NCBI RefSeq assembly: GCF_000188695.1
Contig: NW_004754920.1
Location: 99,264-125,833 of the forward strand
Reading direction: 5' to 3'
Source: Salpingoeca rosetta
Lineage: Eukaryota; Opisthokonta; Choanoflagellata; Craspedida; Salpingoecidae
DNA: 26,570 nt
This document shows positions 1 to 24,342 of this stretch, piece after piece. A program made the position numbers and the translations under genes. Position 1 is the stretch's first letter, and the number at the start of each line of letters is the position of its first letter. Under the pieces are notes generated by a model, which was given only the letters and a program-made list of their open reading frames with translations, was not told the origin of the DNA and did no database searches.

Positions 1-80
1 ACACACACACACACATGCACACACACACACACACACACATGCACACACACATGCACACATGCACACATGCACACAACCTT
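1..80. repeat. (AC)n microsatellite with ATG interruptions
   Basis: A run of AC dinucleotides interrupted by several ATGC units fills the left edge. Read on the minus strand it is a GT-rich run starting just inside the presumed intron that follows the exon at 520-91. Confidence 0.9.
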
Positions 81-90
81 CAGTTCGCAC

Positions 91-20400: not shown

Positions 20401-23400
20401 ATGGCAATGCTGCCAGCAGCAGCAGCGGATACAGCCATGTCCCCAGCAGTGATGCTGCTGTTTCAACGCCGATGCTGGACCGACCACACACTGTTCTCTT
20501 CTCCAACGCGTCCTTCATCAACTTTCTCGTGCGTAGCGGCCCACACATGTTGCAGTCGCTGTTACGGGGAACTGTGCAGCACTTGTGCTCACCCACCCAC
20601 CCACACACACTCACTCACTCACTCACTCACTCACTCACTCACTCACACACACACACTCACTCACACACACACACTCACTCAATCACACACACACACACAC
20701 ACACACACATTCACTCACTCACTCACACGCACACTCACTCACTGACTGACTCACTCACTCACACACACACACACTCACTCACTCACACATACATGCAGGC
20801 GTTTGTGCAGCACGGCCTGCCGACCATCATGGAGGCGCACAAATCGAGCGCACAGCAGCTGGTGCGACCCGTCGACCGATTGGATGCGCACGCAGACGGC
20901 GTTCTCATCTGGGCAGGAGCGGATGCGGGCAGCGGCGGTGCGCAGCCGGGCTCAACATCAATGACCCCACCGTCATCATCCTCATCGTCGTCCTCATCGT
21001 CAACACGTGCGTGTACTTTGGAGCAATTGCAGATCTGAGGATCACCGCACGTGTGTGTCGAGAGGAACATGCATGAGCACATACGTGACAATGGTTCACC
21101 TGCAACACTCTCACCCCATACACGCACGCACACACACACACACACACACACACACACACACACACACTCACACACAAACACACACACACACACACGCCCA
21201 TATATGCAGACTTCGTTCTCCGCCTGGGAGAGGCGAGTTGGCCACCGCTCCTGTCGCCGGCGCGCGTCAATGCAGTGAAACACACGCGCACGTGTGACGA
21301 TGCAGCTGTGTTACGAACAGCGCGCTCCCTCGCGTCGCTGCTGCCAAAGCTGCAGCCCCTTCAACGCACCGGCACCGCAGACCAACGCAAGGGTGTGTGT
21401 CTGTGCATGTGTGCCTGTGTCTGTGTCTGTGTGTGCATGTGTGCGTGTGCGTTGCTTTGGTTGTGCCTGTGCATGTGAGCACGCAGGGTTTGTGCTGCTC
21501 TGTAGATGCGCGCTCACCTCCACCCACCTGCACTTCATTTGCCATCACGTCACTGCAATCACGCCAGCCCTGGCATCGGCCCTGGTGCGTGCGGGCGCTG
21601 CCAGCGACATTGAGGACGATGACGATGTGCTGTTGCGGCAAGTGGCGGTGTGGATTGAGCAGCTCTCCTGCGAGCAGTTGGATCTTGTCTTTCGCTCCAT
21701 TTTCGACGACTACTCGGGCAGGAAGGTCCGGTTTGGAGTGAAGTGGAGGCTTTATGCGTGCATCGAAACCATATGTGTGTACGGTGTGTCTGTGTGTGTA
21801 TGTGTGTCTGTGGGTGTATGTGTGTCTGTGGGTGTATGTGTGTCTGTGGGTGTGGGTGTGTGTGTGCTTGCGTGTGCGTGTGTATGTGTGAGTTGTGGGT
21901 CAGCCCCCTTTTCTGCTATGCACCAACAACTGCTCATCTGCCCGTTTCTTCCTTCCTCGTTTTACATTCACACGCGCGTGCATGCCCAGGCGTACATTGT
22001 GCACGTGTGCGACACGAAGCAAGACAGGCTGCAGACATTTGAGCGCTTGGTGGAGGAAAGCGAGCGCCTCTGTGGCGCACGCGCGAAATACGAAATGGTG
22101 CGGATGTGCATGTGTAAATGTGTGTGCGTGTGTGTGTGTGTGTGTGGGTGGGTGGGTGTGTGTGCGCGCGCGTGTGTGTGTGTGAAAGTGTGCGTGCGTG
22201 TGCATGTGTAAATGTGTGTGTGTGTGTGTGTCAGCGCCTCCACACAATTGTCATGCAACTGTGCCATGTAACAGCAACGATGCGACAACTTACACGCTCA
22301 CACACTCACACACTGACACACACACACATGCAGATGTTGATGGATGCGCTGCTGCGCGATTCCATGACATACGCGCACCGTCGCATTCTCCCGGGCAGCG
22401 TCGCAAGTTTTCTTCACAGCGCAGAGGAGAACCGGTCCGCAATTGCCATTCAGTTCTACTCGCACGTAACCGACCACCTCAACAGCAAGGCGTGCGCGTG
22501 GGGGAAGCACTTGAACGAGACCCGAACAGAGCACGTTGCGTGCCACTGCGAGCGCTACCTGTACAGCCTCATCTTCCCACACGTTGTCGCCCAGCTCACC
22601 AGCAACGCCCGCATCACGGTGATGCTGCGCGCCGCACACCCACCATGCGATCCTTGACATGAAACTGAGTATGATGGACGTGTGGTGTGCACGCGCACGT
22701 GCATTGCGCTTGCTGCTTTCCGAGTGAGCGATGCAGCGGCACTGGCCTTGCTAATGTTGCTGCTGTTGCCCATTTCATCATCGGTGGGGTGGTGCTCGTG
22801 CAGAAGTACCAGCGCCTCTTGGAGTCGAGCCGCGAGTCAATTGACGCGTCGCATCCGCTCCTGCAGGTCCTGCACATACACATGTGAATGCACCTGCAGC
22901 ACGGGCGTGCAGCATTTTGTTTTCCAACTGTTACACACACACACACACACACACACACACACACACACACACACACACACACACACACACACACACACAC
23001 ACACACGTTGCACGGTGAACACACATCCATCCATCCATCACATTTCCTTACTCACACTTAACATCCACGGCATCTCTACACAGATACCGGCAGCTGCGCA
23101 GGATCGTAACGTGATCCTTCTAGTTCGGGATCCAAGGTGGCAGTCCAGCTAAAGATTGCCGCGACGGTGCGTCAGGCTCGGCTGTTCGCTTAAGACAGAG
23201 TGCCGATATAGCCCAAACGGAACACACACACACACACACGTTGCACGGTGAACACACATCCATCCATCCATCACATTTCCTTACTCACACTTAACATCCA
23301 CGCATCTCTACACAGATACCGGCAGCTGCGCAGGCGTGTGCCCCCTGGACCGCGGCACAGGAACACCTGGTTGCCATTGAAACGGCCATCACGCCAAACG

Positions 23401-24342
23401 ACAAACTTGAGGCAGTGTGCAAGGTACGCTACGATTATTGGAAGCACGCGGCGCTTACTTGTATCATGGCACACGGACGTCAACACACACACACAAGGGA
23501 ACAGCACGCTTCTGTTTGCACACATGCACACACACACACGCACACACACACAACCACAACAACAACCACAAAACACCACCACAGGCCGGACAGGCAGTGC
23601 AGGTGCTGGCGAGCGCCGCTGTTGGCGGCTCTGCGGCCGCTGATGACGTGCTGCCCATCTTCGCATTCATCGTCACCAGGGCAACCCCACTCCGCGTCTG
23701 GCTCAACGCAGAGGTGGATGTGCTGTGCTGTGCTGTGTGTGTGTGTGTGTGTGTGTGTGTGTGTGTGTGTGTGTGTGTGTGTGTGTGTGTGTGTGTGTGT
23801 GTGTGTGTGCGTGTGTGTGTGTGTGTGTGTGTGTGTGTGTGTGTGTGTGTGTGCGCGCTCCCTTCCTTCTTGTTCTCACATCTGTGTTGTTCTGCGTTCT
23901 GTGTTTGTTTCGTACATGGTGTATAGTTTATTGCTCAATATGGAGGCTCGCTCCTGGAGTCAGGTGAGATTGTTGCTGCCTCTTTTGCAAGTGCTGTTTG
24001 GTCCTGTGTCTTCATTCCCTGTTCTGTGCTCGCGTTGCACCGCTACTCGCACTCACGTGTGCCGCCCCCCCCCCTTTCTGTGGCATTTGTTGTGCAGGCG
24101 AGATGGCGTATTGGTGGGTGCAGTTCTGCTCAGCCGTGCACGTGGTCGAGCGTATGCTTGACCAGCAGCAAGGACATGAGGATGGTGATGATGGTGTTGG
24201 TGGCAAGGAAGGGCAAGAGGGAAGGCTAGAAACAGGTGATGGTGGTGACGAAGATGAAGGGGAGGTTGATGGTGTTGGTGAAGACGGGAAAATCGATGAG
24301 GTGAACATGAAGGCTGCGCATCAGCTTGAGGCGAGCAAATAA
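17458..24342 (+). CDS. GAPVD1: GAPVD1/GAPex-5-like RasGAP-VPS9 protein, 20 exons, about 965 aa
   Basis: Exons: 17458-17637, 17782-17898, 18078-18197, 18337-18477, 18646-18842, 19013-19052, 19162-19211, 19368-19451, 19671-19742, 20201-20573, 20799-21006, 21210-21392, 21568-21725, 21990-22097, 22334-22618, 22804-22866, 23316-23423, 23585-23713, 23927-23963, 24098-24342. All phases agree; total 2898 nt. The N-terminal helices (RLQRALKREQLFIRAER, SLLRIVMHGLYPAS) and a RasGAP-like core (ALEQPMRQLL, VPSSLR, LFIVRLIAPAC at about 306-316) follow the animal GAPVD1 order. Exon 10 adds a Ser/Pro linker with a 36-bp duplicated SADPTQHS unit. The C-terminal third is a VPS9 domain (PNDKLEAVCK, DDVLPIFAFIVTRATP, GEMAYWWVQFCSAVHVVE) and an acidic tail. 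VPS9 domains activate Rab5-type GTPases; animal GAPVD1 acts in endocytosis. It is shorter than human GAPVD1 (about 1,480 aa) because the middle linker is short. The RasGAP arginine finger is not obvious. Confidence 0.87.
17656..18016. repeat. GT-rich donor-side repeats in introns 1 and 2 of the GAPVD1-like gene
   Basis: GT runs at 17656-17697 and 17918-18016 flank exon 17782-17898. The second degenerates into (GTGTCT)n near 17987-18016. Confidence 0.85.
18229..18278. repeat. (GT)n in intron 3
   Basis: Pure GT run of about 50 bp, 31 bp after the donor at 18197. Confidence 0.9.
18856..18958. repeat. GT/GTCT repeats in intron 5
   Basis: Interrupted GTGTCTGT array starting 13 bp after the donor at 18842. 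Confidence 0.85.
19460..19549. repeat. GT/GTCT repeats in intron 8
   Basis: Array begins within 10 bp of the donor at 19451 and has the same GTGTCTGT interruptions as intron 5. Confidence 0.85.
19852..19962. repeat. (AC)n microsatellite, about 100 bp
   Basis: An essentially pure run within the 458-bp intron 9. No exon is evident elsewhere in this intron, although a stretch of GAPVD1 homology after the LIAPAC motif seems missing. Confidence 0.92.
20596..20796. repeat. CACT/CACA array filling intron 10
   Basis: (CACT)n, (CA)n and CTGA variants run almost continuously from 20 bp after the donor to the acceptor ATGCAG at 20798. Confidence 0.9.
21121..21196. repeat. (CA)n in intron 11, acceptor side
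   Basis: CA run with two short interruptions, ending 13 bp before the acceptor at 21209. Confidence 0.9.
21775..21890. repeat. GTGTGTCTGTGGGTGTAT tandem array in intron 13
   Basis: About three tandem copies of an 18-bp unit are embedded in a GT-rich stretch. Confidence 0.8.
22105..22332. repeat. GT array then CA array within intron 14
   Basis: GT-rich sequence occupies 22105-22232 on the donor side. CA-rich sequence occupies 22291-22332 and runs into the acceptor CACACATGCAG. The two arms are complementary. TGCATGTGTAAATGTGTG occurs at both ends of the GT part. Confidence 0.85.
22933..23006. repeat. (CA)n ahead of direct repeat copy 1
   Basis: A pure run of about 74 bp. A much shorter (AC)n (23222-23239) precedes copy 2. 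Confidence 0.9.
23007..23102 (+). repeat. Direct repeat copy 1 (intron end plus truncated exon start)
   Basis: This copy begins GTTGCACGGTGAACACAC and ends GGCAGCTGCGCAGG. It contains the acceptor and the first 19 bases of the exon encoding IPAAAQ. It is followed by unrelated sequence instead of the rest of the exon. Confidence 0.9.
23103..23222. other. 120-bp unrelated insert between two direct repeats
   Basis: This sequence has no CA/GT character and no similarity to its surroundings. It contains GGATCC near 23130. In the frame set by copy 1 it reads DRNVILLVRDPRWQSS then stop, so splicing to copy 1 would truncate the protein. Origin unknown. Confidence 0.7.
23240..23334 (+). repeat. Direct repeat copy 2 (functional acceptor and exon start)
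   Basis: Matches copy 1 over about 95 bp with a single-base difference (CCACGGCATC versus CCACGCATC). Here the exon continues intact as IPAAAQACAPWTAAQEHL. Confidence 0.9.
23483..23580. repeat. CA/CAACCACAA repeats before a VPS9 exon
   Basis: CA-rich sequence continues to the acceptor CCACAG at 23584. Confidence 0.85.
23726..23853. repeat. (GT)n, about 128 bp, in intron 18
   Basis: Nearly pure GT run with one GC interruption, starting 13 bp after the donor at 23713. Confidence 0.93.

What the first reader, a model, noticed from the sequence alone, without database searches (positions are those of the whole stretch)
1..24342. Strand-aware microsatellite rule: sense (GT)n on the donor side, sense (CA)n on the acceptor side of introns
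Seen directly across about 30 introns on both strands. Plus-strand genes have donor-side GT at 10976, 12621, 13133, 14460, 15405, 16056, 17656, 17918, 18229, 18856, 19460, 21393, 23726, and acceptor-side CA at 10809, 12000, 20596, 21121, 22291, 23483. For the minus-strand glycosyltransferase the plus-strand pattern flips: GT at 5552, 6015, 6555, 7507 lies next to acceptors, and AC at 7863, 8039, 9072, 9935 lies next to donors. Several runs begin at the splice base itself (13133, 14460) or end in CACAG (5551). I found no clear reverse case; the (AC)n at 19852 is closest to neutral. Inference: slippage may grow from GT-starting donors and CAG acceptors, or be kept as splicing enhancers. UG and CA repeats are known splicing-factor sites in animals (TDP-43/CELF and hnRNP L).
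Basis: partly seen in the sequence, partly recalled or inferred. Interest (0 to 1): 0.82.

Follow-up and report, generated by a model that had tools for sequence, protein, structure and literature searches.

The report
Repeat polarity at intron ends
In this protist-like genome, GT repeats tend to sit near the start of introns and CA repeats near their end, on whichever strand the gene lies, probably because introns have a G/T-rich front and a C-rich back out of which such repeats grow; the pattern is real and strong but a variant of things known from animals.

Summary
The polarity is real and extends beyond the window. I wrote a gene finder and hid all GT/AC tract letters from it, so tract orientation could not bias strand calls. 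In 320 well-flanked introns from the window and 22 other stretches of the same 54 Mb genome, GT runs of at least 10 bp lie in the donor half 236:53 and CA runs in the acceptor half 102:34; the best-flanked introns give 15 of 15 and 11 of 12. 22 of 23 stretches agree; L029 does not. It is strongest within about 100 nt of the splice sites and not special to microsatellites: non-tract sequence shifts from G/T-rich to C-rich, and GGTGG, CCACC and (CT) motifs are polar too. Most GT tracts do not start at the splice base. GT and CA tracts avoid sharing an intron (odds ratio 0.39), the opposite of zebrafish AC/GT hairpin introns. Best reading: splicing-related composition zones seed polar repeats and slippage lengthens them. 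No RNA data were available; roles of binding factors are untested, and whole-genome anchored patterns were uninformative.

The parts
13133..13201 (+). (GT)n beginning at the splice base of intron 13133-13324 (SH2/IQ gene)
   Evidence: one of the minority that start at +1
14460..14499 (+). (GT)n beginning at the splice base of intron 14460-14579
12620..12747 (+). donor-side (GT)n in intron 12605-12847
   Evidence: starts 15 nt after the donor, ends 100 nt before the acceptor
23734..23853 (+). (GT)n starting 20 nt after the donor of intron 23714-23926 (VPS9 gene)
21129..21195 (+). acceptor-side (CA)n in intron 21007-21209
   Evidence: last run ends 14 nt before the acceptor
20644..20774 (+). (CA)n with CACT in intron 20529-20798, mostly acceptor half
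   Evidence: relative positions 0.45, 0.52, 0.62, 0.88
5552..5580 (-). plus-strand GT = sense (CA)n, acceptor side of galactosyltransferase intron 5536-5848
   Evidence: 16 nt from the acceptor; strand by Galactosyl_T hit
6555..6627 (-). sense (CA)n, acceptor side of intron 6548-6746
7533..7587 (-). sense (CA)n, acceptor side of intron 7505-7714
7863..7905 (-). plus-strand AC = sense (GT)n, donor side of intron 7803-7917
   Evidence: 12 nt after the donor
9072..9158 (-). sense (GT)n of intron 9036-9173, from 15 nt after the donor to 36 nt before the acceptor
   Evidence: centre at 0.42
22933..23006 (+). REVERSE case: pure (AC)n in the donor half of called intron 22867-23148
19868..19962 (+). 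Reverse or neutral (AC)n in called intron 19754-20200
   Evidence: relative position 0.36; flanking exon of the model is weak
8894..8962 (-). Sense (CA)n of intron 8831-9000 reaching to 38 nt from the donor; against the rule

Best explanation
Introns of this genome have two composition zones tied to the splice sites: roughly 100-150 nt of G/T-rich sense sequence after the donor and roughly 100-120 nt of C-rich, G-poor sequence before the acceptor (shown in the sample). Short GT-like seeds are therefore common in the first zone and CA- and CT-like seeds in the second (shown). Replication slippage lengthens whatever seeds are there into microsatellites, which is very frequent in this genome (inferred). 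The zones probably reflect splicing constraints: a C-rich pyrimidine tract with few G and AG before the acceptor, and tolerance of or preference for G/U near the donor (inferred from general knowledge of splicing). Placement of long tracts is further sharpened, perhaps because G-containing or fold-prone tracts are removed from the acceptor zone (inferred, weak). No special polarity mechanism for repeats is needed.
For: Blind gene models: GT 236:53 and CA 34:102 by donor:acceptor half. GT fills 15-18% and CA 1-3% of bases 20-100 nt after donors; 20-80 nt before acceptors CA fills 6.5-9% and GT about 1.5%. In 47 introns of 320 nt or more, non-tract GC skew decays from +0.28 to about 0 by 180 nt after the donor and from -0.40 to about -0.05 by 160-180 nt before the acceptor. 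With runs of 6 bp or more masked, sense G falls 0.30 to 0.16 and C rises 0.25 to 0.40 across the intron, TG 0.155 to 0.07, CA 0.065 to about 0.11, AG 0.038 to about 0.015. 136 tract-free introns show the same zones. Runs of 5-9 bp are already polar (odds ratio 4.4; 4-bp runs 1.9) and runs of 10 bp or more are more so (13.5). Other motifs, not masked for tracts: GGTGG 57:15, CCACC 26:117, loosely defined GTT-type 113:42 and CAA-type 14:44, (CT) 2:26. The sign flips inside introns and is alike in early and late introns of a gene, which speaks against transcription- or replication-strand mutation bias. No overall strand bias of the GT 30-mer (135594 against 132946).
Against: Long tracts are about three times more polar than short seeds (z 3.9), so something beyond seeding may act. 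On the donor side GT tract excess persists beyond the zone: 9% against 0% at 180-200 nt in long introns, few bases. GT and CA tracts avoid one another within an intron, which seeding alone does not predict, though less clearly when only canonical halves are counted (0.53, p 0.053). T6 runs lean to the acceptor half (5:14, p 0.06) and G6 runs are not significant (9:3). The cause of the zones is inferred. Whole-genome anchored patterns give no support: the donor anchor gave GT 54, CA 18, but its backward-read control gave the same ratio (63, 19); the acceptor anchor gave CA 118, GT 125.
Confidence: 0.6

Rival explanations
1. The tracts are selected splicing elements: UG tracts after the donor bound by a TDP-43/CELF-like factor and CA tracts before the acceptor bound by an hnRNP L-like factor, either one sufficing for an intron.
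For: 184 of 320 well-flanked introns carry a tract. Avoidance within one intron (odds ratio 0.39, p 0.002) fits 'one is enough', and is not significant between neighbouring introns (0.71 and 1.15). An hnRNP L-like RRM, a PTB-like protein and a TDP-43 N-terminal domain are encoded. Long tracts are more polar than seeds.
Against: Donors with GT tracts are not weaker and acceptors with CA tracts do not differ. 136 of 320 introns have no tract. The TDP-43-like domain is followed by CCHC knuckles in the part seen. Other motifs are polar too.
Confidence: 0.2
2. GT and CA tracts at opposite ends of the same intron pair and bring the splice sites together, as described for zebrafish AC/GT introns.
For: The order is right for pairing: GT before CA in 20 of 22 introns that have both (15 of 17 well-flanked). 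13 of 17 such introns of the blind set have GT:CA pairs in the minimum-energy fold.
Against: Co-occurrence is below expectation: 17 of 320 with both, odds ratio 0.39; 9 of 273 in introns under 320 nt, odds ratio 0.28, p 0.0007. Two of the 17 are window introns over 450 nt, one of them with a missed exon. So it can apply to about 5% of introns at most.
Confidence: 0.04
3. Slippage starts at the splice signals themselves (GT of the donor, CA of the CAG acceptor).
For: Runs at 13133 and 14460 start at the splice base; 10 of 134 GT introns do so, against 0 starting at +2 or +3.
Against: 124 of 134 start further in, median 34 nt; CA runs end a median 44.5 nt before the acceptor. Polar GGTGG, CCACC and CT motifs cannot come from it.
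Confidence: 0.06
4. Long UG tracts are removed from the acceptor zone because UG RNA folds (pUG fold) or G-rich tracts block branch-point or acceptor recognition; CA tracts are harmless there.
For: 9 of 320 introns have a GT run touching the last 40 nt against 79 with one in the first 40. Perfect GT runs of 12 or more repeats: 39 donor half, 12 acceptor half.
Against: Does not explain why CA tracts avoid the donor zone (7 of 320 in the first 40 nt against 30 in the last 40), nor polarity of runs too short to fold. In humans long pUGs are reported enriched near both splice sites (PMC12276007, introduction passage seen).
Confidence: 0.08

Closest known systems
[quoted passage not shown]
   Same: Complementary AC and GT repeats near opposite ends of introns (as told in passages of the reviews PMC7404189 and PMC9198270; the paper itself is not held).
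   Different: There the two repeats co-occur in one intron; here they avoid each other.
Human poly(UG) runs near splice sites / pUG fold
   Same: Non-random placement of long UG runs at splice sites (PMC12276007, passages seen).
   Different: Humans: near both 5' and 3' splice sites; here mainly donor side, with sense CA on the acceptor side.
CA-repeat and UG-repeat splicing regulators (hnRNP L; TDP-43, CELF)
   Same: Same RNA motifs; hnRNP L-like and PTB-like RRMs and a TDP-43 N-terminal domain are encoded here. Motif preferences are recalled, save that the abstract listed says TDP-43 binds GU repeats.
   Different: No evidence here of binding or regulation; other motifs are polar too.
Intron composition asymmetry and pyrimidine-rich acceptor tracts of eukaryotes (recalled)
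   Same: G/T-rich front, C-rich back, AG-poor end.
   Different: Here slippage is so common that 184 of 320 introns carry microsatellite runs, which make the asymmetry visible.

Membership tests
Zebrafish-type AC/GT bridging introns | GT and AC repeats co-occur in the same intron more than expected | tested here: not met
   17 of 320 with both, odds ratio 0.39, p 0.002; Mantel-Haenszel by stretch 0.40, 17 observed against 27.3 expected
Zebrafish-type AC/GT bridging introns | Predicted helix between the two tracts | tested here: inconclusive
   13 of 17 both-tract introns have GT:CA pairs in the MFE fold; no shuffled control, no experiment, about 5% of introns
Zebrafish-type AC/GT bridging introns | Splicing independent of U2AF2 | not testable with these tools
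   needs splicing assays; a U2AF large-subunit profile gave 15 exon-wise matches, all below the cut-off
Splice-site-proximal UG repeats (pUG) as in humans | Long UG runs non-randomly placed near splice sites | tested here: met
   12 or more repeats: 39 donor half, 12 acceptor half; runs of 10 bp or more touch the first 40 nt in 79 and the last 40 nt in 9 of 320 introns
hnRNP L / TDP-43 / CELF regulated elements | Cognate factor encoded | tested here: inconclusive
   40-residue hnRNP L-like RRM piece (E 2e-11 to hnRNP L-like); 9 TIGR01649 matches, all below the cut-off exon by exon; TDP-43_N over cut-off with one TAG inside the matched stretch, CCHC knuckles after it; CELF not tested
hnRNP L / TDP-43 / CELF regulated elements | Tract needed for splicing or bound by the factor | not testable with these tools
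   needs CLIP, knock-out or reporters

The most novel reading that the evidence does not exclude
Introns in this lineage carry an either/or polarity mark: a UG tract on the donor side or a CA tract on the acceptor side, rarely both, read by UG-binding and hnRNP L-like proteins to tell intron fronts from backs; complementary tracts in one intron are avoided because they would pair and hide each other.
Probability: 0.13. Interest if true: 0.78.

Novelty: new variant of a known kind. Interest (0 to 1): 0.5.

Why it matters
It shows a strong compositional polarity tied to splice sites, made visible by microsatellites, in what is probably a choanoflagellate, the sister group of animals. It offers a simple test of whether animal-style UG/CA-repeat splicing control predates animals, and a counter-example to bridging hairpins as the meaning of GT/AC repeats at intron ends. 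It may also give gene finders a usable strand cue.

Tried and rejected
Transcription- or replication-strand mutation bias: rejected, since polarity flips inside introns and is alike for early and late introns. Bridging hairpins as general cause: rejected. Pairing across an exon (CA in the upstream, GT in the downstream intron): no enrichment (odds ratio 0.71, p 0.21). Compensation of weak splice sites: not seen. Whole-genome anchored patterns: uninformative. Donor anchor AGGTGAGT gave forward counts GT 54 and CA 18, but the backward-read control gave 63 and 19 on the strand that counts each anchor once, the same ratio; acceptor anchor TTGCAGG gave CA 118 and GT 125 (controls 15 and 26). The other strand's counts list one anchor many times and were not used. 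Naming the organism by protein search failed (nothing at E 0.001 or better). Branch point: no clear motif; CTCAC is common 30-60 nt before the acceptor, not followed up. Intergenic control: about 10.5 kb called intergenic, six segments with tracts in the blind set, too few.

Dropped before counting: of 25 stretches fetched by place, L014 (mostly N), L019 and L026 (all N) were left out; introns with any N, introns at stretch ends, and, for the 320 set, 140 of 460 introns with a weak flanking exon. Called introns still include errors (a missed SH2 exon at about 10877-10974; the SH2/IQ and VPS9 genes joined into one model).
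Full report
Where the window lies. It is G000:C14:99264-125833 in a 54.38 Mb, 49-contig genome, GC 0.554. Size, contig lengths and gene content (intron-rich; SH2+IQ, VPS9, galactosyltransferase, BTB with pentapeptides) fit the choanoflagellate Salpingoeca rosetta, whose assembly is described as about 55 Mb in 154 scaffolds with N50 1.52 Mb (PMC4054682, passages seen). 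This naming is an inference; a protein search returned nothing.

Check of the observation. To test the rule I wrote a two-strand hidden Markov gene finder, seeded with 16 hand-picked window exon pieces, self-trained on the window plus 22 of 25 fetched stretches (225,891 non-N bases). In a first version dinucleotide tracts scored the same on both strands; in the decisive version 19,845 tract letters were replaced by N before gene finding, so tract orientation cannot leak into strand or boundary calls.

Result. 460 introns; 320 have both flanking exons scoring above 6. GT runs of 10 bp or more: 236 donor half, 53 acceptor half; CA runs: 34 and 102. One vote per intron: GT in the donor half in 114 of 133, CA in the acceptor half in 55 of 68. 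Outside the window 103 of 119 and 47 of 59. With flanks above 15: 41 of 45 and 23 of 26; above 25: 15 of 15 and 11 of 12. The rule sharpens as gene models get better. 22 of 23 stretches agree; L029 runs against it (6 for, 9 against), and L015 (14:11), L030 (9:7) and L020 (5:3) are weak. No one of 200,000 locus-level sign flips reached the observed score. Both gene strands show it (tract letters visible).

Exceptions in the window. (AC)n 22933-23006 is in the donor half, 19868-19962 too in the called model, sense-CA 8894-8962 comes within 38 nt of its donor, and a 10-bp GT run at 9486-9495 is 14 nt from its acceptor. So 'no clear reverse case' is wrong, though 338 of 425 runs in the 320 introns obey.

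What it is. The polarity is strongest near splice sites: GT fills 15-18% and CA 1-3% of bases 20-100 nt after donors; CA fills 6.5-9% and GT about 1.5% of bases 20-80 nt before acceptors. In 47 introns of 320 nt or more the two are about equal by 100-120 nt before the acceptor; on the donor side GT falls from 16-23% to about 10% but still exceeds CA at 180-200 nt, while non-tract GC skew there has fallen from +0.28 to about 0. With runs of 6 bp or more and their flanks removed, sense G still falls from 0.30 to 0.16 and C rises from 0.25 to 0.40 along 328 introns, and 136 tract-free introns show the same zones. Short runs of 5-9 bp are polar (odds ratio 4.4), long ones more so (13.5, p 1e-4). 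Among other motifs, counted without masking tracts, GGTGG, GTT-type, GCGT-type, TCTG-type and GTGA-type prefer the donor half; CCACC, CAA-type, ACGC-type, TCAC-type, CT-type and C6 prefer the acceptor half; G6, A6, GA-type and T6 (5:14) are not significant. So the finding is the visible edge of two composition zones, amplified by slippage: run numbers exceed a Markov expectation 35-fold (GT) and 75-fold (CA).

How it probably works. Shown: zones, proximity to splice sites, polar seeds, polar tracts. Inferred: slippage lengthens seeds; the zones come from splicing constraints (C-rich pyrimidine tract, G- and AG-poor acceptor zone; G/U-tolerant donor zone). Polarity flips within introns and is alike in early (GT 75:20 donor:acceptor, CA 11:32) and late introns (75:16, 14:36), which speaks against strand-wide mutation bias. 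Growth from the splice base explains few tracts (10 of 134 GT introns). Tracts do not accompany weak splice sites.

An unexplained extra. GT and CA tracts share an intron less often than expected: 17 of 320, odds ratio 0.39, p 0.002; 9 of 273 below 320 nt, 0.28, p 0.0007; 0.38 (bootstrap 0.19-0.66) after allowing for non-repeat length (first model set); 0.40 stratified by stretch. Counting only canonical placements it is 0.53, p 0.053, and at other flank thresholds 0.51 (p 0.08), 0.26 (p 0.01) and 0.30 (p 0.09), so this is suggestive. GT in one half and GT in the other are positively linked (2.9, p 0.003), GT and CT are not linked (0.99), and adjacent introns are not significantly linked (0.71, 1.15). 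This is opposite to zebrafish AC/GT bridging introns, which I know here only through review passages.

Factors. The genome encodes an hnRNP L-like RRM (closest solved chains hnRNP L-like and hnRNP L, E 2e-11 to 8e-10, PTB 8e-4; a 40-residue query), a PTB-like protein (E 5e-33), and a TDP-43 N-terminal domain (69.6 bits, cut-off 27.1, one TAG inside the matched stretch) followed by CCHC knuckles (my reading) rather than RRMs in the piece seen. CELF was not tested. These make the enhancer reading possible, not supported.

Literature. Nine searches listed no paper that I recognised as treating repeat polarity in choanoflagellate introns; lists were capped, abstracts shown only in part, and only open-licence papers are held. 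Seen as passages: PMC7404189, PMC9198270, PMC12276007, PMC5446763, PMC4054682. Human pUGs are said to be enriched near both splice sites, unlike here.

Limits. No RNA data; gene models are my own; the intergenic control is too small; the sample is 0.4% of the genome; whole-genome anchored patterns were uninformative: donor anchor GT 54, CA 18 with a backward control of 63 and 19, acceptor anchor CA 118, GT 125.

Noticed in passing
window 23007-23101 and 23240-23334: A near-identical segment of about 95 bp occurs twice about 233 bp apart, including an acceptor and the start of an exon (ATACCGGCAGCTGCGCAGG); seen by eye. It may be a recent partial duplication of an intron end, and makes the intron around the reverse (AC)n case uncertain.
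   Followed up: no
window about 3425-3605 (+): The pentapeptide-repeat gene has an exon-like stretch with an in-frame TAG near 3486; the gene finder skipped part of it. Could be a pseudo-exon, an alternative exon or a decayed allele.
   Followed up: no
L034 (G000:C9:68170-71343): A TDP-43 N-terminal domain appears to be joined to CCHC zinc knuckles rather than RRMs in the part seen, an unusual arrangement.
   Followed up: partly
window 11759-11846: An 88-bp pure (CAA)n glutamine tract inside the coding sequence of the SH2/IQ gene.
   Followed up: no
L029 (G000:C3:900001-910000): The only sampled stretch where tracts run against the polarity rule (6 for, 9 against); wrong gene models or a different kind of gene were not examined.
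   Followed up: no
window 24826-26568 (-): A long intron-free reading frame of regular leucine-rich-like repeats with poly-threonine at its N-terminal, window-edge end, beside intron-dense genes.
   Followed up: no
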